Position numbers and translations under genes: made by a program. 64,000 nt of DNA from Streptomyces sp. NK08204. GTDB taxonomy: Bacteria > Actinomycetota > Actinomycetes > Streptomycetales > Streptomycetaceae. The stretch covers positions 682,001-746,000 of the forward strand of contig NZ_JAINVF010000001.1 of NCBI RefSeq assembly GCF_020400585.1, given 5' to 3'. Shown here one piece after another: positions 55,735-64,000 of the stretch. The notes under the pieces are model-generated. The model was given only the letters and a program-made list of their open reading frames with translations. It made no database searches and had not been told where the DNA came from. Every line of letters begins with the position of its first letter. Position 1 is the stretch's first letter.

Positions 55735-56457
55735 TCACACCGTGCGGGTCTGCGCCCCTGACGTGGAGATGGGCGGAGGCGTACGGGTCCTGGAGGACAC
55801 GTCGGTGGTCGCCATCCGGACGGCCTCCAGCAGCGAGTCGACCACGGGCCAGCCCGTGCGGGCCAGGGCGGTCCGGTCCTGTACGCCGCCGGTGTGCAGG
55901 ACGGCACGGACGCCCGCGCGCCGTGCGGCGTCGCCGTCGTCCCCGGTGTCGCCGACCAGGACGATCCGGCCGGCCGTCACGCCCGCCTGGGCCAGCAGGC
56001 CCATGTGGTCCAGCAGACGCCGGTGCTTGCCGCCGGCCGCGTCCCCCGTGCGCCCGGTGACCAGCGCGAACCGTCCCGCCAGCCCATGCTCGGCCAAGGC
56101 CTTGACCAGGGCGTCCTCGGGGTGGAGGGACAGCAGGGACTGGGTCGCTCCACGCTCCTCGGCCAGGGCGAGGGCTTCCCGTGCGTCGGCTGCGAGGGCG
56201 CAGCGCCTGCTCCGGTAGTGCTCGTGGTAGGCGGCCCCCATCCGTTTCATGGTGTCCTGGCCCGGCACCACGCCGTGGGTGCGCTGGATCAGTTCCGTGG
56301 CGGACAGGGAGAAGGCCGCGCGGTAGCGGTCGTGCGAGACGGCGGCCAGACCGGCCGTGCGATAGGCGGCGTTCATGGCGTCCGCGATCAACGCGGCATC
56401 GTCGAGGAGCGTGCCGTTCCAGTCCCACACCACGTGGGGTCGCGCATCTGTGTCCAT
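55735..56457 (-). CDS. HAD-superfamily hydrolase (phosphoglycolate-phosphatase-like)
   Basis: 240 residues from ATG 56457. Motif I is VVWDWNGTLLDD (the second acid of DxD is Asn, a common variant in this HAD subgroup), motif II is FALVTGRTGD, motif III is within GKHRRLL and motif IV is IVLVGDTGDDGDAARRAG. A helical C1 cap (SATELIQRTHGVVPGQDTM) lies between. It is 89 bp downstream of the alpha-glucosidase on the same strand, so it may act on a phosphorylated sugar. Confidence 0.88.
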   Translation of the reverse strand: MDTDARPHVVWDWNGTLLDDAALIADAMNAAYRTAGLAAVSHDRYRAAFSLSATELIQRTHGVVPGQDTMKRMGAAYHEHYRSRRCALAADAREALALAEERGATQSLLSLHPEDALVKALAEHGLAGRFALVTGRTGDAAGGKHRRLLDHMGLLAQAGVTAGRIVLVGDTGDDGDAARRAGVRAVLHTGGVQDRTALARTGWPVVDSLLEAVRMATTDVSSRTRTPPPISTSGAQTRTV

Positions 56458-56546: not shown

Positions 56547-58232
56547 TCAGACCGTCCACCAGACGGTGGTGTCCGATTCGATCACCGCGGTCGGCCCCTC
56601 CGGACCGGCGCCGGTGGAGGCGAGCAGCACCGTGCCGGGGGCCGCTATCTCGACCGGCGCTCCGGTGATGTTGGTGATGCAGACGAACGAGCCCTCGGCG
56701 CTGTCGCGGCGGAAGGCGACCACGCCCGCAGGGGCGTCCAGCCAGGTGACCTCGTCGCCGGCGCCGAGCGCCGGGTGCTGCCGGCGGATCGCCAGGGCGC
56801 TGCGGTAGAGCTCGAGGGTGGAGGTGGGGTCGCCGGTCTGCGCCTCGACGCTGAGCGAGCCCCACTCGGAAGGCTGGGGCAGCCAGCTGCCACCGCTGCC
56901 GAAGCCGTAGGAACTGCCCTCGACGGTCCACGGGATGGGCACCCGGCAGCCGTCGCGGAAGCCGTCCTGGCCGGAGGCCCGGAAGAAGGAGGGGTCCTGA
57001 CGGACCTCGTCGGGCAGGTCGGTGACCTCGGGCAGGCCGAGCTCCTCGCCCTGGTAGACGTAGGCGGAACCGGGCAGCGCGAGCATCAGCATGGTGGCGG
57101 CGCGGGCGCGGCGCAGGCCGAGTTCGCGGTCGCCCGGGGAGCGCATCTGGGTTCCCTGACCGGGCGGGTTGCCGAACCGGGTGGCGTGCCGGGTGACGTC
57201 ATGGTTGGACAGCACCCAGGTGGCCGGGGCACCGACCGAGCGCATCGCGTCCAGCGAGACGTCGATCACCTCGCGCAGCGCGGCCGCGTCCCAGTCGGTC
57301 CCGAGGTACTGGAAGTTGAAGGCCTGGTGCAGCTCGTCGGGGCGGACGTACTTGGCCGTGCTGGTGACGGTCGGGGTCCATGCCTCGGCGACGAAGATAC
57401 GGTCGCTGCCGTACTCGTTGAGCACACGGCGCCACTCGCGGTAGATCTCGTGGACACCGTCCTGGTCGAAGAACGGCATGGCGTCGTTGCCGAGCAGCTT
57501 GAGCTGATCCCTGCTGCCGATGTCGGGCAGGCCGTCGGCCTTGATCATGCCGTGCGCGACGTCGATGCGGATGCCGTCGATGCCACGGTCGAACCAGAAG
57601 CGCAGGATCGAGCGGAACTCGTCGCGTACGGCCGGGTGTTCCCAGTTGAAGTCGGGCTGCTCGGGGGCGAACAGGTGCAGGTACCACTCGCCGTCCTCGA
57701 CACGGGTCCAGGCGGGACCGCCGAAGATGGACTCCCAGTCGTTGGGCGGCAGTTCGCCGTTCTCCCCCTTGCCCTTGCGGAAGTGGTAGCGCTCGCGCAG
57801 CGGGGAACCGGGACCCTCGCGCAGCGCCTGCTGGAACCACTCGTGCTGGTCGGAGGAGTGGTTGGGCACCAGGTCCACGATCACCCGCAGGCCCAGGGCG
57901 TGGGCGTCGCGGACCAGCGCCTCGGCGTCGGCGAGGTCGCCGAAGACCGGTTCGATCCGGCGGTAGTCGGAGACGTCGTAGCCGGCGTCGACCTGCGGGG
58001 AGGCGAAGATCGGCGAGAGCCAGACGGCGTCGACGCCCAGGTCGCGCAGGTGGGGCAGGCGGGTGCGGACGCCGGGGAGGTCACCGACGCCGTCGCCGTC
58101 GCCGTCGGCGAAGCTGCGCGGGAAGACCTGGTAGATCACCGCACCGCGCCACCACTCGGGGACGGCCGGGGGGCGTGCGTCGGCGGTCGGGCTGGGGGCG
58201 GGTGACAGTGCGTCAGCGACGGTCTGGGTCAC
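56547..58232 (-). CDS. GH13 alpha-glucosidase (AglA-like), catalytically complete
   Basis: 561 residues from GTG 58232, with GGAG upstream. WWRGAVIYQVFPRSFADGDG opens the GH13 barrel. Region I is DLVPNHSS, region II GIRIDVAHG with nucleophile D224, region III FVAEAWTP with the acid/base Glu, and region IV VLSNHDVTRH with the transition-state Asp and His. Domain composition fits oligo-1,6-/alpha-1,4-glucosidases of the Streptomyces maltose system. No signal peptide, so it cleaves imported maltodextrins or isomaltosides. A TTGCAG-type operator lies in its promoter, and the divergent operon begins with a close paralogue. Confidence 0.95.
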   Translation of the reverse strand: MTQTVADALSPAPSPTADARPPAVPEWWRGAVIYQVFPRSFADGDGDGVGDLPGVRTRLPHLRDLGVDAVWLSPIFASPQVDAGYDVSDYRRIEPVFGDLADAEALVRDAHALGLRVIVDLVPNHSSDQHEWFQQALREGPGSPLRERYHFRKGKGENGELPPNDWESIFGGPAWTRVEDGEWYLHLFAPEQPDFNWEHPAVRDEFRSILRFWFDRGIDGIRIDVAHGMIKADGLPDIGSRDQLKLLGNDAMPFFDQDGVHEIYREWRRVLNEYGSDRIFVAEAWTPTVTSTAKYVRPDELHQAFNFQYLGTDWDAAALREVIDVSLDAMRSVGAPATWVLSNHDVTRHATRFGNPPGQGTQMRSPGDRELGLRRARAATMLMLALPGSAYVYQGEELGLPEVTDLPDEVRQDPSFFRASGQDGFRDGCRVPIPWTVEGSSYGFGSGGSWLPQPSEWGSLSVEAQTGDPTSTLELYRSALAIRRQHPALGAGDEVTWLDAPAGVVAFRRDSAEGSFVCITNITGAPVEIAAPGTVLLASTGAGPEGPTAVIESDTTVWWTV

Positions 58233-58306
58233 TGAGGGAGCTCCTCTGCTGGGGACTGCTGTTCGGCAGGACAGTAGTGCCACTTCCCCAGCGCCTGGAA
58301 GATCTT

Positions 58307-58396
58307 GCTGCAAATTTCTGCAACTCACGCGCCAAATGGCCCCGCGTTCGCCCGATTCTTCGGCATCGACCTGCAAGTCCTTGCAGAAAATTGCAG
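58307..58396. promoter_or_regulatory. Two inverted TTGCAG-type operators in the divergent promoter
   Basis: On the plus strand TTGCAGAAAATTGCAG lies at 58381-58396. On the minus strand TTGCAGAAATTTGCAG lies at 58322-58307. The two are 15 of 16 identical and point away from each other. The plus-strand copy overlaps a perfect 16-bp palindrome, CTGCAAGTCCTTGCAG (58371-58386). CTTGCAG-type repeats are associated, as I recall, with LacI-family maltose regulators (MalR/Reg1) in streptomycetes. Confidence 0.6.
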
Positions 58397-58404
58397 GTTG
58401 AGTG

Positions 58405-58434
58405 TTGACGGCTTCAAGATCCATTTCCTAGCCT
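58405..58434 (+). promoter_or_regulatory. Candidate promoter of the five-gene operon
   Basis: TTGACG at 58405-58410 and TAGCCT at 58429-58434 are 18 nt apart, 46 bp before the ATG at 58480. The operator repeats sit directly upstream of the -35, at a position suited to repression or activation. Confidence 0.5.
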
Positions 58435-58479
58435 CGCTGCGGCGCGCCAACTCCTGACCACCGACGATTGGTTCCAGAG

Positions 58480-60099
58480 ATGCAGCATGTCCACAGCAGT
58501 GCGGGAGCTGCCTGGTGGCGGGACACCGTCATCTACCAGGTCTACCCGCGCAGCTTCGCCGACGGGAACGGCGACGGCACGGGCGACCTCGCCGGCTTGC
58601 GTACCCGCCTGCCCTACCTGCGCGACCTGGGCGTCGACGCCCTGTGGATCACACCGTTCTACTCCTCCCCCATGGTCGACGGTGGGTTCGACGTCGCCGA
58701 CCACCGCACGATCGACCCGCTGTTCGGTGACCTCACCGACGCCGAGGCGCTGATCGACGACGCCCACGCCCTGGGCCTGCGGGTGATCGTGGACCTGGTG
58801 CCCAACCACACCTCCGACCAGCACCCCTGGTTCCAGCGGGCGCTGCGCGAAGGGCCCGGCTCCGCGCTGCGCGAGCGGTACCACTTCCGTCCCGGCCGGG
58901 GTACGGACGGCGAACTGCCGCCCAACGACTGGGAGTCGGTGTTCGGCGGGCCGGCCTGGACCCGCACCACCGACCCCGACGGCACCCCCGGCGACTGGTA
59001 TCTGCACCTGTTCGCCCCCGAGATGCCCGACCTCGACTTCGACTCCCCGGCGGTCCAGGACGAGTTCCGCTCGATCATCCGTTTCTGGCTGGACCGGGGC
59101 GCCGACGGTCTGCGGATCGCCGACGCCCACGGCCTGGTGAAGGCGGCAGGGCTGCCCGACCTCGGCCGCACCGCCCAGGCCGGACTGCTGGGCAGCGAGG
59201 CCGTGCCGTACTTCGACCAGGACGGCGTCCACGAGATCCACCGCGCATGGCGCCGGATCCTCGACGGCTACCCGGGCGAACGCATCGCCATCGCCGAGGC
59301 CGTCACCCCCGACGCGGACCGCCTGGCGCGGTACGTCCGCGCCGACGAGCTCCACCACACCCAGAACTTCGACTACCTGTCCGCCCCCTGGGAGGCCGAG
59401 GCGCTCCGCGCCACCATCGAGCGGACCCTGACCGCCCACGGGGCGGTCGGCGCCGTCGCCACCTGGGGGCTCGGCAACGCCGACGTCCACCGCGTGGTCA
59501 CCCGCTACGGCGACGACGCACCGGGCCTGCGCCGGGCCCGTGCCGCAGCCCTGCTCACCCTCGCGCTGCCCGGCGCCGCCTACATCTACCAAGGTGACGA
59601 GCTGGGCCTGCCCGAGGTGCTCGACCTGCCCGAGGAGGCCCTCCGGGACCCGCAGTGGGAGCGCTCCGGGCACACCGAGCGGGGCCGCGACGGCTGCCGG
59701 GTGCCCCTCCCCTGGAACGGCGACGCCGCGCCGTACGGCTTCGGCCCGGACGACGCCGCGCCCACGTGGCTGCCGCAGCCCGAGGCATGGGCCAAGCTGA
59801 GCGTGGCCGCCCAGACGGAAGACCCGGCGTCCATGCTGACCCTGTACCGGGCGGCGCTGCAGATCCGCCGGGAGGAAGAGGGCCTCGGCGACGGTCCCCT
59901 CGACTGGCGGACCGGCCCGCAGGGCACCCTGGTCTTCGGCCGCGGCGACGGCTTCGTCTGCACGGTCAACACCGGCGACCGGGCGGCCGAACTGCCGCGG
60001 CCGGGTGAACTCCTCCTCGCCAGCTCGCCGTTCGACGTCTCGGACGGCGAACGCATCACGCTTCCGGCGGACACGGCCGCGTGGTGGCGGGCCCAGTGA
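58480..60099 (+). CDS. GH13 family protein lacking the catalytic nucleophile (pseudoenzyme candidate)
   Basis: 539 residues from ATG 58480; an in-frame TTG lies 12 nt upstream. It is a clear paralogue of the divergent alpha-glucosidase (WWRDTVIYQVYPRSFADGNG, DLVPNHTS, NDWESVFGGPAWTR). Region II, however, reads GLRIADAHG instead of GIRIDVAHG, putting Ala214 where the nucleophile Asp should be. Region IV reads GLGNADVHRV, with Ala334 replacing the conserved His. The acid/base Glu (about residue 273, IAEAVTP) and Asp335 remain. Frame and length are intact, so the protein is maintained. It may bind rather than cleave a glucoside, or use the shifted Asp215. It leads the operon and overlaps the aminotransferase start (GTGA). 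Confidence 0.92.
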   Translation: MQHVHSSAGAAWWRDTVIYQVYPRSFADGNGDGTGDLAGLRTRLPYLRDLGVDALWITPFYSSPMVDGGFDVADHRTIDPLFGDLTDAEALIDDAHALGLRVIVDLVPNHTSDQHPWFQRALREGPGSALRERYHFRPGRGTDGELPPNDWESVFGGPAWTRTTDPDGTPGDWYLHLFAPEMPDLDFDSPAVQDEFRSIIRFWLDRGADGLRIADAHGLVKAAGLPDLGRTAQAGLLGSEAVPYFDQDGVHEIHRAWRRILDGYPGERIAIAEAVTPDADRLARYVRADELHHTQNFDYLSAPWEAEALRATIERTLTAHGAVGAVATWGLGNADVHRVVTRYGDDAPGLRRARAAALLTLALPGAAYIYQGDELGLPEVLDLPEEALRDPQWERSGHTERGRDGCRVPLPWNGDAAPYGFGPDDAAPTWLPQPEAWAKLSVAAQTEDPASMLTLYRAALQIRREEEGLGDGPLDWRTGPQGTLVFGRGDGFVCTVNTGDRAAELPRPGELLLASSPFDVSDGERITLPADTAAWWRAQ

Positions 60100-61406
60100 C
60101 CACCGATCCCACCCACACCACCGTGACCAGGGACTCCTCGGGCCTCGGTGCCCTCACTGCGGACTCCGCGCTGAGCGGGGACGGCCTGTGGCTGCACACC
60201 CCCGACGGGCGCAGCCTCCTGGACGCCGCGTCCGGCACGTTCAACCTGCCGCTCGGCTACGCCCATCCGCACGTCGTCACCGCGGTGCAGGAGCAGGCCG
60301 GCCGTGTCTCCCACGCCAGCTCGCACTTCACCCGTCCGGCCGGCGCTGCGCTGGCCACCCGGCTGCTCGCGCACGCCCCCGAGCAGCTGTCCCGCGGCTG
60401 GATCCGCGACGTGTCCGGATCCACCGCCAACGAGTGCGCGGTGAAGATCGCCCAGAAGTACACCGGACGCCGGCAGGTCGTCAGCTTCTTCCTGTCCCAC
60501 CACGGGCAGACCATGGCGACCACGGCCATGTCCGGCAACGCCTTCCGCCGCCGCCACTTCCCCGCGACCGCCACCACCGAGACGCTGGTCGTCCCGGGCG
60601 CGTACTGCCACCGCTGCTTCTACAACTCCTCGTACCCGAGCTGCCAGGCACTCTGCGCCACCCGGATCGAGGATTTCCTGGAGTACGCGAGCAGCGGCGA
60701 CGTGGCCGCGGTGCTGGTGGAGCCCGTCCTGGGCAACGGGGGCAACATCGTGCCGCCGCCGGAGTTCTTCCGCGAGCTGCGGCGGATCTGCGACCGGCAC
60801 GGGATCGTGCTGATCGCCGACGAGGTGCAGACCGCTCTCGGCCGCACCGGCCACATGTTCGCCTCGCAGCGGCTCGGCCTGGAGCCGGACGTCATCACCC
60901 TGGCGAAGGGACTCGGCGGCATCGGGCTGCCGATCGGCGCGGTGCTGATGCGCGAGGAACTGGACGTCCTGGACGCCCACGAGCACTCCTTCACCAGCGG
61001 CGCAAGCCTGCTCGGCCTCGCCGCCGCCCACGCCACCCTCGATGTGCTGGAACAGCCCGGTTTCCTGGAGCGGGTGGACGCGCTCGGCGAGACGCTCGGC
61101 GCCAGGCTGCGGGACCTGGCCGACGAGGTGCCGGCCGTCAGCGACGTGCGCGGCCTGGGCTACATGTGGGGCATCGAACTGTCCCGGCCCGATGGCTCCC
61201 CCGACCCGGAGCTCGCCCGGGAGACCATCGCCGCCGCCGAGTCCGGGCACGACCTGGTGGTGCGCGGCTCGCGCTACGGACTGGGCAACGTCGTCAAGGT
61301 CCGGCCCGCCCTCGTCGCCGAGGAGCGGGATCTGGACGACATCTGCGCCCGGCTGCGTCTGGCCCTGCTGGACGCGACCAAGACCCTGGAGAGTGACCGA
61401 CGATGA
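60096..61406 (+). CDS. Class III PLP-dependent aminotransferase (GabT1-like)
   Basis: 436 residues from GTG 60096, overlapping the GH13 stop. DAASGTFNLPLGYAHPHVV is the N-terminal motif, SGSTANECAVKIAQKYTGR binds the PLP phosphate, LIADEVQTALGRTGHMFA contains the PLP-pyridine Asp, and ITLAKGLGGIGLPIGAVLM holds the Schiff-base lysine. Class III enzymes of this kind use glutamate, alanine or GABA as amino donor and act on keto acids or keto sugars. In azasugar clusters, GabT1 of the same class aminates a ketose phosphate. Its stop overlaps the dehydrogenase start (ATGA). Confidence 0.92.
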   Translation: MTTDPTHTTVTRDSSGLGALTADSALSGDGLWLHTPDGRSLLDAASGTFNLPLGYAHPHVVTAVQEQAGRVSHASSHFTRPAGAALATRLLAHAPEQLSRGWIRDVSGSTANECAVKIAQKYTGRRQVVSFFLSHHGQTMATTAMSGNAFRRRHFPATATTETLVVPGAYCHRCFYNSSYPSCQALCATRIEDFLEYASSGDVAAVLVEPVLGNGGNIVPPPEFFRELRRICDRHGIVLIADEVQTALGRTGHMFASQRLGLEPDVITLAKGLGGIGLPIGAVLMREELDVLDAHEHSFTSGASLLGLAAAHATLDVLEQPGFLERVDALGETLGARLRDLADEVPAVSDVRGLGYMWGIELSRPDGSPDPELARETIAAAESGHDLVVRGSRYGLGNVVKVRPALVAEERDLDDICARLRLALLDATKTLESDRR

Positions 61407-62458
61407 AGGCCCTCGTCTACCACGGCCCCTTCGATCTGCGGGTGGAGGAGCGCCCCCGGCCCCGGGCCCTCGGACCCGACGATGTCGTGGTGCGGGTGCG
61501 GCGCACCGGCATCTGCGGCACCGACATCGGGATCGCCACCGGGAAGTACTCCGCCAAGCCGGGCGTCGTCCTCGGTCACGAGAGCGTCGGCGAGGTCGCC
61601 GAGACCGGCCCGGGGGTGACCGACCTGCCGGTCGGCACCCAGGTGGTGGTCAACCCGACCTTCTTCTGCGGCTCCTGCGCGCCGTGCCGCTCGGGCCGGG
61701 AGAACCACTGCGCACGCAAGCACGAGACCGAGGCGGGGGTGTCGGCCGACGGCCTGTTCGCCGAGTACTACCTGACCTCGCGCACGTTCGTCCATCCGCT
61801 CCCGGCAGGCACCGACCGCGCCGGGATGGTGCTGAGCGAACCGCTGTCCTGCGCGCTGACGGGCGTACGCCGGCTCCGGCTGACCCCGCAACTGCGCGCG
61901 GCCGTCCTGGGCGGCGGCCCGATGGGCGTGATGTACGCGTCCCTGCTGGCCCAGCAGGGCCTCACCGGTGTGCTGGTGGAGGCCTCGGCCGCACGGGCCG
62001 AGGTACTGCGCACCACGCTGCCGGGCCTGTGGCCCGTGGTGGAGAACCTGCCCGAGGCGGTGGACCGGCTGGCCCGGCCGGGCAGCGGCCTGGACGTGGT
62101 GGTGGACACCACCGGCGTCCTGCTGGAGCAGGCGCTCCCCCTGCTGAATCCGGGTGGCCAGCTGCTGCTCGTGGGGCTGAGCGGCGGCAGCGCCACCATC
62201 GATCCCGCGTGGATCGCCGACAACAGCATCCAGGTGCTCGGCTCCATCGACTCGCTCGGCACCTTCGGCGACGCGGTGGAGTTGCTGGCGGCCGGCGCGC
62301 TCCCGCTGGACGGGGCCGTGACGGCCGAGGTCCCCCTCGAGGAGTTCGCCCGCGCCTTCGCCCTGCTGGGCGTGGACCTGGCAGCCGGATGCCGTACCGA
62401 GCCCACCGGCCACCTCAAGGTGTGCCTGACCCCGGCGTCCGCCGGAGAGGAGCTGTGA
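61403..62458 (+). CDS. Zinc-dependent medium-chain dehydrogenase (GutB/Tdh-like)
   Basis: 351 residues from ATG 61403. The catalytic zinc ligands are in GICGTDIGI and GHESVGEVAE, the structural zinc site is CGSCAPCRSGRENHC, and the nucleotide-binding loop is VLGGGPMGVMYASLLAQQGL. The Zn-site organisation is that of sorbitol/threonine/polyol dehydrogenases. In nojirimycin-type pathways GutB1 of this family oxidises an amino-polyol to the cyclising aldehyde. Gene order here (aminotransferase then dehydrogenase, overlapping) fits that logic. Confidence 0.93.
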   Translation: MKALVYHGPFDLRVEERPRPRALGPDDVVVRVRRTGICGTDIGIATGKYSAKPGVVLGHESVGEVAETGPGVTDLPVGTQVVVNPTFFCGSCAPCRSGRENHCARKHETEAGVSADGLFAEYYLTSRTFVHPLPAGTDRAGMVLSEPLSCALTGVRRLRLTPQLRAAVLGGGPMGVMYASLLAQQGLTGVLVEASAARAEVLRTTLPGLWPVVENLPEAVDRLARPGSGLDVVVDTTGVLLEQALPLLNPGGQLLLVGLSGGSATIDPAWIADNSIQVLGSIDSLGTFGDAVELLAAGALPLDGAVTAEVPLEEFARAFALLGVDLAAGCRTEPTGHLKVCLTPASAGEEL

Positions 62459-62460
62459 CC

Positions 62461-63372
62461 ATGACCGGCAGCGATGTGATCGTGATCGGTTTCAACACCA
62501 TGGACCTGGTGTTCACCGGCCGGGAGGCACTGCGCCCCGACCATAAGGTCTACGCCGACAGCCTGACCCAGCACGCGGGCGGGCAGGGATCGAACGTCGC
62601 TGTGGACCTGGCCGGACTGGGGCTGGCCGTCCACTACCTGGGGATGTTCGGCGACGACGCCTGGGGGGAGCAGGTCCGGGCCTCGATGACCGACGCCGGC
62701 ATCAGCGTGGAGGGCTCGGTGACCGTGCCGGACTGTCCCAACCACGTTGCGGTGGTGGCGGTCGCCACCACCTCCGGCACCCGGTCGATCGTGATGTGCA
62801 AGGATCCGCGGCTGACCGCCGGCGCCGACCTGGTCCCGGCCGATGCACTGCGCCGCACACGTGCCTTCTACACCGACGGGCACGAGTTCGAGGCCTCCGT
62901 GGCCGCCGCCGAACTGGCCCGCTCCCTGGGTGTACGGGTCTTCGCGGACCTGGAGGTCGCCCGCGAGGACGCGGCCCGTCTGCTCGCCCACGTGGACGAG
63001 CTGGCCGCCCCTCTGGAGGTGATCCGCACCCTGGCCGGCACGGACGACGAGGCCAAGGCGCTGGCGTACGTCCGCGCGCTCGGGCCGGCCGTCGTGGTGG
63101 CCACCAAGGGCGCCGAGGGCTGCGCCGGCCTGGACGAGCAGGGGCGGCACTTCACCGTGGCGGCCTTCCCTGCCGAGGTCGCCGACAGCACCGGCGCGGG
63201 GGACGCGTTCCACGCCGGCTTCCTCGCCGCCCGGCTGCGCGGCGCCGACGTCCGCGAGGCCGCGGCCTGGGGCAACCGCGCCGGCGCCGTCAAGTGCGGG
63301 CACCCCGGGCCGCGTGTGCCGCTCGCGGCGATGGCGCGGCTGCGGGAGGAGATGGAAGGGCCCGCGGCGTGA
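62461..63372 (+). CDS. PfkB/ribokinase-family sugar kinase
   Basis: 303 residues from ATG 62461, two bases after the dehydrogenase stop. AGGQGSNVAVDLAGLGLAVH is the substrate-binding N-terminal motif (GG-x-x-N-x-A), and DSTGAGDAFHAGFLAARLRG is the C-terminal PfkB signature with the catalytic Asp and anion hole. It probably phosphorylates a sugar or amino-sugar. A kinase together with a phosphatase in one operon could supply and later remove a phosphate during biosynthesis, or confer self-protection. Its stop overlaps the HAD start (GTGA). Confidence 0.92.
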   Translation: MTGSDVIVIGFNTMDLVFTGREALRPDHKVYADSLTQHAGGQGSNVAVDLAGLGLAVHYLGMFGDDAWGEQVRASMTDAGISVEGSVTVPDCPNHVAVVAVATTSGTRSIVMCKDPRLTAGADLVPADALRRTRAFYTDGHEFEASVAAAELARSLGVRVFADLEVAREDAARLLAHVDELAAPLEVIRTLAGTDDEAKALAYVRALGPAVVVATKGAEGCAGLDEQGRHFTVAAFPAEVADSTGAGDAFHAGFLAARLRGADVREAAAWGNRAGAVKCGHPGPRVPLAAMARLREEMEGPAA

Positions 63373-64000
63373 GGGATCTGTTCGAACCGGGCAGGCGGCC
63401 GGCGGCGGCGCTCTTCGACTGCGACGGCCTGCTGGTGGACAGCGAGCCGCTGTGGGGCACCGCCATGGAGCTGGTGCTGCGCTCGTTCGGCCGGGAGACC
63501 GACACGGCGGCGCTCACGCACGAGCTGACCGGGGCGTCCATCGCCCGGACCGTGGAACGCCTGCACGAGCTGGTGGACGTCCCCGGGCTGACGCAGCGCG
63601 AGGTCGAGGGGCGGCTGCTCGACCGGTACGCCGAGGCGGTGGCCCGGGAAGGGGTGCGCCCCATGCCGGGCGCGGTGGAGCTGGTGCAGGCGCTCGCCGA
63701 GGAGCTCCCGGTCGGCGTGGTGTCGAACAGTCCGGAAACGGCGGTCCGCGCCGTGCTGCGGGCCACGGGCCTGGCGGACCGGGTCTCGGCCGTGGTCGGC
63801 GCGCACGGCTCCTGCCGGCCCAAGCCCGACCCGGAGCCGTACCTGACGGCTTGTGCCCTGCTCGGGGTCGAGGCGTCGGCGTGCGTCGCCTTCGAGGATT
63901 CGGTGACCGGTGCGCAGGCGGCGGTGAGCGCGGGACTGCGGCTGCTGGTCGTCCCGGCGCCGGGTGTGCCGGCAGCCGCCTATCCGGCGGGCGCGAAGCT
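63369..64000 (+). CDS. HAD phosphatase, beta-phosphoglucomutase-like subgroup (3' end outside window)
   Basis: GTG 63369 overlaps the kinase stop, and the frame is open to the window edge (about 210 residues). Motif I is LFDCDGLLVDSEPLWG with both catalytic Asps, the C1 cap follows (LTGASIARTVERLHELV), then motif II VGVVSNSPETAV, motif III RPKPDPEPYLTACALLG and motif IV FEDSVTGAQAAVSAGL. Such enzymes dephosphorylate sugar or polyol phosphates, or act as phosphomutases. In this operon it could remove the phosphate from an aminated sugar intermediate, the step done by Yktc1 in known azasugar clusters. Confidence 0.9.
   Translation, partial: MRDLFEPGRRPAAALFDCDGLLVDSEPLWGTAMELVLRSFGRETDTAALTHELTGASIARTVERLHELVDVPGLTQREVEGRLLDRYAEAVAREGVRPMPGAVELVQALAEELPVGVVSNSPETAVRAVLRATGLADRVSAVVGAHGSCRPKPDPEPYLTACALLGVEASACVAFEDSVTGAQAAVSAGLRLLVVPAPGVPAAAYPAGAK

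What the first reader, a model, noticed from the sequence alone, without database searches (positions are those of the whole stretch)
58480..64000. Candidate azasugar (nojirimycin-type) or amino-sugar biosynthetic operon next to an alpha-glucosidase
Seen: five genes in one direction linked by GTGA, ATGA, 2-bp and GTGA junctions, encoding a GH13 paralogue, class III aminotransferase, Zn-dependent dehydrogenase, PfkB kinase and HAD phosphatase. Known: the azasugar signature in Bacillus is GabT1 (class III aminotransferase), Yktc1 (phosphatase) and GutB1 (Zn dehydrogenase), which convert fructose-6-phosphate to a nojirimycin-type iminosugar. Inference: the same three activities are here, with a HAD enzyme in place of Yktc1 plus a kinase. 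The divergent gene encodes an intact alpha-glucosidase, the usual target of such inhibitors. A catabolic amino-sugar pathway is an alternative.
Basis: partly seen in the sequence, partly recalled or inferred. Interest (0 to 1): 0.85.

Follow-up and report, generated by a model that had tools for sequence, protein, structure and literature searches.

The report
Azasugar-peptide operon with dead glucosidase
One bacterial operon holds relatives of the enzymes that build sugar-mimicking glycosidase inhibitors, next to genes of peptide-joining families and a glucosidase lacking its catalytic residue, so it likely makes a sugar mimic carrying amino acids, with the inactive glucosidase possibly serving as the producer's protection.

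Summary
The aminotransferase and the zinc dehydrogenase fall inside the azasugar clades (100/100 and 100/99 support), beside the Paenibacillus lineage that uses a HAD phosphatase. The 14 class III aminotransferase paralogues found in the genome lie outside, as do the 11 dehydrogenase paralogues put in the tree. The operon is eleven genes long (58480 to about 71971). After the HAD gene come a free-standing NRPS condensation domain, a lantibiotic-dehydratase-like (PEARL-type) protein, an adenylation domain, a carrier protein, an ATP-grasp ligase and an MFS exporter. The best reading is therefore an azasugar or aminopolyol joined to amino acids; the product is untested. The first gene encodes a GH13 pseudoenzyme: the nucleophile Asp is Ala214 and a conserved His is Ala334, while Glu273 and Asp335 are kept. 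It belongs to a small group (4 of 120 listed proteins, itself included; 97/90 support with the diagnostic columns removed). I classify it as a new variant of a known kind.

The parts
56547..58424 (-). Divergent GH13 alpha-glucosidase, catalytic motifs intact; likely true start GTG 58232
   Evidence: Pfam PF00128; DGIRIDVAHG, AEAW, SNHD motifs; start candidates
58233..58479 (.). Shared intergenic region with five TTGCAG/CTGCAA hexamers incl. perfect palindrome CTGCAAGTCCTTGCAG 58371-58386
58480..60099 (+). GH13_30-like pseudoenzyme: nucleophile Asp->Ala214, His->Ala334; acid/base Glu273 and Asp335 kept
60081..61406 (+). Class III aminotransferase of the azasugar (GabT1-type) clade; coupled start may be GTG 60096
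61403..62458 (+). Zn-dependent aminopolyol dehydrogenase (GutB1-type clade)
62461..63372 (+). PfkB-family sugar kinase
63369..64000 (+). HAD phosphatase, hexitol-phosphatase (HxpB)-like; gene runs to 64058 (outside the window). Beyond it, in window numbering: C domain 64055-65350, LanB/PEARL-like 65347-67668, A domain 67655-69115, PCP 69121-69405, ATP-grasp 69402-70691, MFS 70688-71971

Best explanation
An eleven-gene operon joins an aminotransferase-dehydrogenase pair of the azasugar clades with a HAD phosphatase, a PfkB kinase, single-domain NRPS proteins, a PEARL-like protein, an ATP-grasp ligase-family protein and an MFS transporter, and it is predicted to make an azasugar (or its aminopolyol precursor) linked to one or more amino acids. 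Shown from sequence: gene content and order, coupling, the clade membership of the aminotransferase and dehydrogenase, and the loss of the GH13 nucleophile. Inferred: the aminotransferase aminates C2 of a ketose phosphate (fructose-6-phosphate in the known pathway), the HAD enzyme removes the phosphate, and the dehydrogenase oxidises the freed alcohol so that the amine closes the ring. The A domain loads an amino acid on the carrier protein; the C domain, the PEARL-like protein (aminoacyl-tRNA dependent by homology) and the ATP-grasp ligase make the amide bonds; the MFS protein exports. The kinase either feeds the ketose phosphate or phosphorylates the product for protection, as AcbK does with acarbose. 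The dead GH13 likely binds the sugar mimic or its glycan without turnover, as protection or as a sensor.
For: Aminotransferase in the 37-row azasugar clade at 100/100 and in the Paenibacillus/Chitinophaga sub-clade at 100/99, with the 14 own-genome class III paralogues outside. Dehydrogenase in the matching clade at 100/99, same sub-split. Motif SGNAFRRRHFPATATTETLVVPGAYCHRC against the published consensus. Aminotransferase and dehydrogenase lie together in 5 of 5 Paenibacillus loci and 15 of 18 genus loci, and in 0 of 30 other class III loci. An aminotransferase-dehydrogenase fusion exists, P0340. HAD closest to a 2-deoxyglucose-6-P phosphatase. The junctions run on without a break into the NRPS genes. 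PEARL-like relatives sit by A and/or carrier domains in 10 of the 11 loci fetched. ATP-grasp closest to an L-amino acid ligase. Orthologues of GH13, aminotransferase and PEARL-like protein in Streptomyces sp. NPDC004126, each listed with contig length 119517.
Against: No metabolite data. GabT1 and GutB1 sequences themselves were not available for the trees. The motif departs from the published consensus at two fixed positions and is one residue shorter; 9 of the 18 genus loci also fail its first half. In the 53 loci around aminotransferase relatives, no relative of this operon's kinase, LanB-like, carrier, ATP-grasp or MFS protein was found at E 1e-8, and A or C domain matches in only four, L068, L071, L073 and L074. 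None of the 11 loci around PEARL-like relatives holds the aminotransferase or dehydrogenase. So the combination rests on two strains, one of them only by equal contig length. No thioesterase domain was found among the operon proteins, and A-domain specificity could not be read. The epimerase and reductase of the deoxynojirimycin route are unidentified according to PMC8382821, so their presence could not be tested.
Confidence: 0.6

Rival explanations
1. Two neighbouring clusters: a plain azasugar cluster (GH13 to HAD) followed by an unrelated small-peptide NRPS cassette that merely reads on from the same promoter.
For: NRPS + LanB-like cassettes without azasugar genes exist elsewhere (10 of 11 loci; L115 also has an ATP-grasp match).
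Against: HAD and C genes overlap by GTGA and all eleven genes are co-directional. The single MFS gene, the usual azasugar partner (PMC8382821), stands after the NRPS part.
Confidence: 0.15
2. The amine is acylated by the NRPS part before any ring can close, so the product is an N-acyl aminopolyol or an amino-sugar-peptide, not a cyclic azasugar.
For: Proteins of three amide-forming families follow the amine-forming enzyme.
Against: The dehydrogenase is in the same clade as those found beside azasugar aminotransferases and a HAD phosphatase is present.
Confidence: 0.15
3. A C7N aminocyclitol cluster of the validamycin type, since ValM falls in the same aminotransferase network cluster as GabT1.
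For: ValM is in aminotransferase cluster 7 of PMC8382821.
Against: No sugar-phosphate cyclase among the operon proteins; the genome's three strong and one weak PF01761 hits are elsewhere (C19, C91, C53, and C1 about 476 kb away). The dehydrogenase is of the azasugar kind, whereas PMC8382821 reports ValN as only 23% similar to GutB1.
Confidence: 0.05
4. A catabolic amino-sugar or polyol operon next to alpha-glucosidase genes.
For: Zn dehydrogenase, PfkB kinase and HAD phosphatase also occur in sugar catabolism; nearest solved kinase is sulfofructose kinase.
Against: Azasugar-clade placement; NRPS/PEARL-like/ATP-grasp/MFS genes follow; a GH13 without its nucleophile would be of little catabolic use (inference).
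Confidence: 0.04

Closest known systems
Azasugar three-gene cluster of the Paenibacillus/Chitinophaga kind (aminotransferase - dehydrogenase - HAD phosphatase, MFS nearby; PMC8382821)
   Same: Same aminotransferase sub-clade (52-58% identity to five Paenibacillus loci) and dehydrogenase sub-clade (44-45%); L014 has MFS - aminotransferase - dehydrogenase - HAD
   Different: Adds PfkB kinase, dead GH13, C, A, PCP, PEARL-like and ATP-grasp genes in one operon
Canonical Bacillus/Streptomyces gabT1-yktC1-gutB1 nojirimycin cluster (PMC8466323)
   Same: Same aminotransferase and dehydrogenase superclades as genus loci such as L066
   Different: Phosphatase is HAD, not inositol-monophosphatase type; gene order differs; aminotransferase only 47-51% identical to the 18 genus members found
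sna (threopeptin) cluster: PEARL-like SnaE with NRPS (PMC11212132)
   Same: LanB-like PF04738 protein without a PF14028 elimination domain in the operon, beside NRPS domains
   Different: C domain here has canonical HHLTCDG, not the ureido signature EHHXXHDG; domains are free-standing; azasugar genes present
Acarbose cluster self-resistance kinase AcbK (PMC9854587)
   Same: A kinase inside a glycosidase-inhibitor-type cluster; the acarbose 7-phosphotransferase is among this kinase's PDB matches
   Different: Weak match (49 bits against 94 for sulfofructose kinase); role here unproven
GH13_30 alpha-glucosidase CmmB (PDB 8yif/8yie)
   Same: Same fold, best sequence and structure match of the operon GH13
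   Different: Operon GH13 lacks the nucleophile Asp and the NHD His

Membership tests
Azasugar three-gene cluster | Aminotransferase of the GabT1 clade with the published motif | tested here: met
   Clade 100/100 (GabT1 itself not in the tree); motif present with two substitutions and the 29-residue spacing also seen in Paenibacillus
Azasugar three-gene cluster | Aminopolyol Zn dehydrogenase clustered with it | tested here: met
   Adjacent gene, clade 100/99 with dehydrogenases of other azasugar-type loci
Azasugar three-gene cluster | Clustered sugar phosphatase (IMPase or HAD) | tested here: met
   HAD family PF00702/PF13419, closest solved 1te2 2-deoxyglucose-6-P phosphatase
Azasugar three-gene cluster | Production of an azasugar | not testable with these tools
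   Needs metabolite analysis
Canonical gabT1-yktC1-gutB1 nojirimycin cluster | IMPase-type phosphatase between aminotransferase and dehydrogenase | tested here: not met
   Dehydrogenase follows directly; phosphatase is HAD; L066 shows the canonical order, its phosphatase read by eye from a DPIDGT motif
PEARL (peptide aminoacyl-tRNA ligase)-like | PF04738 glutamylation-type domain without PF14028 elimination domain nearby | tested here: met
   Only PF04738 found; no operon protein matched PF14028 (genes outside the operon not scanned for it); model of 91.4 mean pLDDT matches the TbtB glutamylation domain
PEARL (peptide aminoacyl-tRNA ligase)-like | ATP- and aminoacyl-tRNA-dependent amide formation | not testable with these tools
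   Needs enzyme assay; the PEARL-specific ATP residues were not checked
Ureido-forming C domain | EHHXXHDG motif | tested here: not met
   FHHLTCDG read from the translation printed
Active GH13 alpha-glucosidase | Catalytic nucleophile Asp in the DGxR(I/V)D motif | tested here: not met
   Ala214; Asp in 116 of the 120 listed proteins
C7N aminocyclitol cluster | Sugar-phosphate cyclase gene in the cluster | tested here: not met
   PF01761 hits only far away; none among operon proteins

The most novel reading that the evidence does not exclude
A new class of natural product, an azasugar-peptide assembled by free-standing NRPS parts plus a tRNA-dependent PEARL-like ligase, whose producer shields itself with a conserved nucleophile-less alpha-glucosidase acting as an inhibitor-binding decoy or sensor.
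Probability: 0.3. Interest if true: 0.85.

Novelty: new variant of a known kind. Interest (0 to 1): 0.62.

Why it matters
Azasugars are drug scaffolds, and the bacterial routes described in the papers read here are mostly short three-gene clusters with simple products. An operon that couples the core to proteins of three amide-forming families would open a route to azasugar conjugates. The conserved dead alpha-glucosidase gives a specific, testable idea about self-protection or sensing in glycosidase-inhibitor producers.

Tried and rejected
Rejected readings: catabolic operon, aminocyclitol cluster and ureidopeptide C domain (see the rivals and the membership test). A-domain specificity: only the conserved Asp of alpha-amino-acid codes could be placed by eye from the alignment; no substrate is claimed. 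Kinase function from sequence: inconclusive. Regulatory site: CTTGCAGNNNNTTGCAG occurs once in the genome, so no link to another promoter was found; one search used a wrong spacer and is void. PHROGs search of the LanB-like protein: no match; PDB sequence search of it: no match. The second genus-wide aminotransferase search from another centre drew largely the same sample and added no new locus. The alpha-glucosidase fold model has only 72.6 mean pLDDT, so no pocket analysis was made.

Literature: the held open-access library was searched for azasugar or iminosugar with NRPS terms, GabT1/GutB1 with NRPS terms, kifunensine biosynthesis, GH13 pseudoenzymes, and azasugar with lantibiotic dehydratase. 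Only the listed titles and abstract openings were seen: 3 of 3 and 2 of 2 papers, but 20 of 4,895, 20 of 3,114, 20 of 34 and 20 of 25. None of those seen described an azasugar-NRPS hybrid or a dead GH13 in such a cluster. The library lacks most subscription papers, so this is weak evidence of novelty. PMC8466323 reports 58 of 114 gabT1-yktC1-gutB1 clusters inside antiSMASH-predicted clusters; which types these are I did not see, so an NRPS link may already be present in that set.
Full report
What is there. The window is G000:C1:682001-746000. The five genes and junctions of the finding are real. Reading on past the window edge shows six more genes in the same direction with the same coupling: HAD/C by GTGA, C/LanB-like by GTGA, LanB-like/A by a 14-bp overlap, A/PCP by a 5-bp gap, PCP/ATP-grasp by ATGA, ATP-grasp/MFS by ATGA. 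The unit is eleven genes, 58480 to about 71971 in window numbering, and is followed by a convergent ORF. Pfam gives Condensation, Lant_dehydr_N, AMP-binding, PP-binding, ATP-grasp-type and MFS domains. To the left, beyond the divergent GH13, the genes look unrelated by eye, apart from a HAD-like gene at 55735-56346 whose relation is unknown.

The azasugar core. Beal and Horenstein (PMC8382821; abstract, introduction, results and part 1 of 2 of the discussion read) define the bacterial signature as aminotransferase, phosphatase and dehydrogenase, give a motif for the aminotransferase, and report that Chitinophaga and Paenibacillus use the order aminotransferase-dehydrogenase-phosphatase with a HAD phosphatase, and that an MFS gene is commonly associated. 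Here the order is aminotransferase-dehydrogenase-kinase-HAD with an MFS gene at the end. The motif is present with two substitutions and one residue fewer; the shorter spacing is also that of the five Paenibacillus proteins. The first half of the motif (SGNxFRxxxFP) is found in 5 of 5 Paenibacillus loci, 9 of 18 genus loci and 0 of 30 other class III loci; a loose form of the whole motif is found in 59 of the 120 listed homologues, and YCxRC in 108 of 120. A relative of the dehydrogenase lies in the same locus (up to about 21 kb) in 5 of 5, 15 of 18 and 0 of 30 of these loci, and a HAD relative in 3 of 5, 2 of 18 and 0 of 30. In a 78-row tree the aminotransferase falls in the 37-row azasugar clade at 100/100 and in its 20-row part with Paenibacillus and Chitinophaga at 100/99; the 14 other class III places found in the genome are outside. 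For that tree I took 15 of the 119 other listed homologues and 3 of the 5 Paenibacillus loci, and dropped three outgroup rows for odd length. The dehydrogenase tree has 33 rows; of 29 other PF08240 places in the genome 14 matched the dehydrogenase and 11 were kept, three being dropped for length. It gives the matching clade at 100/99 and the matching sub-split; no characterised catabolic dehydrogenase was in it. Aminotransferase and dehydrogenase thus seem to share one history. A fusion of the two, P0340, is known. GabT1 and GutB1 themselves were not at hand; L066, which reads aminotransferase - phosphatase with a DPIDGT motif (IMPase motif recalled, no family scan) - dehydrogenase, stands for the canonical clusters. 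The HAD enzyme is nearest to a solved 2-deoxyglucose-6-phosphate phosphatase, and NCBIfam's hexitol phosphatase HxpB is its best but sub-threshold model.

How rare. In a sample of 392 genus genomes drawn from a larger group, 18 others have an aminotransferase at E 1e-100 or better, at 47-51% identity. In the 53 loci around aminotransferase relatives, no relative of the kinase, LanB-like, carrier, ATP-grasp or MFS protein was found at E 1e-8; A or C matches occur in L068, L071, L073 and L074, and a GH13 match in L082. The protein database holds orthologues at 89% (aminotransferase), 86% (GH13) and 84% (LanB-like), each named Streptomyces sp. NPDC004126 and each listed with contig length 119517. 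That they share a contig is inferred from the equal length. Further aminotransferase relatives at 74-85% (P0243-P0246) come from contigs whose context I could not read.

The peptide part. The C domain carries the canonical HHxxxDG motif, not the ureido signature of PMC11212132 (abstract, introduction and discussion read). The LanB-like protein has only PF04738, is confidently folded (91.4 mean pLDDT) and matches MibB and the TbtB glutamylation domain; a 2026 review states that no PEARL crystal structure was reported (PMC12945691, passages). In the 11 loci of its relatives that I fetched, 10 have A and/or carrier domains within about 10 kb, and none has a match to the aminotransferase, dehydrogenase, kinase or HAD. 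PMC11212132 showed such a protein extending a nonribosomal peptide. The ATP-grasp protein exceeds the cut-off of NCBIfam NF005543 and is closest to a solved L-amino acid ligase. So proteins of three amide-forming families follow the amine-forming core. The inference that they act on one product rests on the operon structure and the second strain.

The dead glucosidase. The first gene's product is about 60-67% identical to its nearest intact GH13 relatives, but has Ala214 for the nucleophile Asp, Asp215 for Val, Val275 for Trp and Ala334 for His (one search printed 215 beside the label by an off-by-one, the Ala is 214); Glu273 and Asp335 are kept. Of the 120 listed proteins, itself included, 116 have the Asp; the four without are this protein, P0122, P0123 and P0143. 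Among the 30 loci returned by a 394-genome family search only this one lacks it; lower-ranked matches were not read, and the row for the divergent neighbour (L165) is void because it picked up the overlapping operon gene. With ten diagnostic columns removed, the four still form one group at 97/90 against 33 others (32 of the 116 intact listed proteins plus the divergent GH13), although P0143 is a long branch; the divergent GH13 sits elsewhere, so the two GH13 genes are not a recent local duplication. Divergence like that of its operon partners (86% against 84-89%) suggests that the protein is kept for use. Solved structures include MutB D200A with glucose (that D200 is the nucleophile is recalled), so binding without turnover is plausible. 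Whether it protects, senses or does something else is open. The gene context of P0143 (Streptacidiphilus cavernicola) is not known.

The kinase. Its nearest solved relative is sulfofructose kinase; the acarbose 7-phosphotransferase is a weaker match. AcbK is described as acarbose self-resistance in PMC9854587 (passages read). In one other genus locus, L081, a PfkB gene stands head to head with a HAD-aminotransferase pair, though it is not close to this kinase (no match at 1e-8); PMC8466323 (abstract and section 3.4 read) reports other kinase families interleaved in Streptomyces azasugar clusters.

Verdict. The azasugar core is well supported; the hybrid product is the best reading but untested; the pseudoenzyme is the most surprising part.

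Noticed in passing
window 58308-58396: Five of the window's eleven TTGCAG/CTGCAA hexamers lie here, with the perfect palindrome CTGCAAGTCCTTGCAG. It looks like an operator between the two divergent GH13 genes; CTTGCAG repeats as maltose-regulator sites in Streptomyces are recalled, not tested.
   Followed up: partly
G000:C91:82872-85166: A second LanB-like protein (38% identical) elsewhere in the same genome.
   Followed up: no
L081:7521-9511: In another genus genome a PfkB kinase gene is head to head with a HAD-aminotransferase azasugar-type pair.
   Followed up: partly
L072:12911-14842: A GH35-like protein directly follows the dehydrogenase of an azasugar-type locus; a glycosidase-family gene beside the core may recur.
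   Followed up: no
L068:14974-19872: A 731-residue protein with a partial class III aminotransferase match lies downstream of the azasugar pair, followed by an A-domain and a C-domain match: another possible azasugar-NRPS neighbourhood.
   Followed up: no
P0340: 770-residue fusion of azasugar-type aminotransferase and dehydrogenase in the protein database.
   Followed up: partly
window 55735-56346: HAD-like gene on the minus strand just downstream of the divergent GH13, of unknown relation to the cluster.
   Followed up: no
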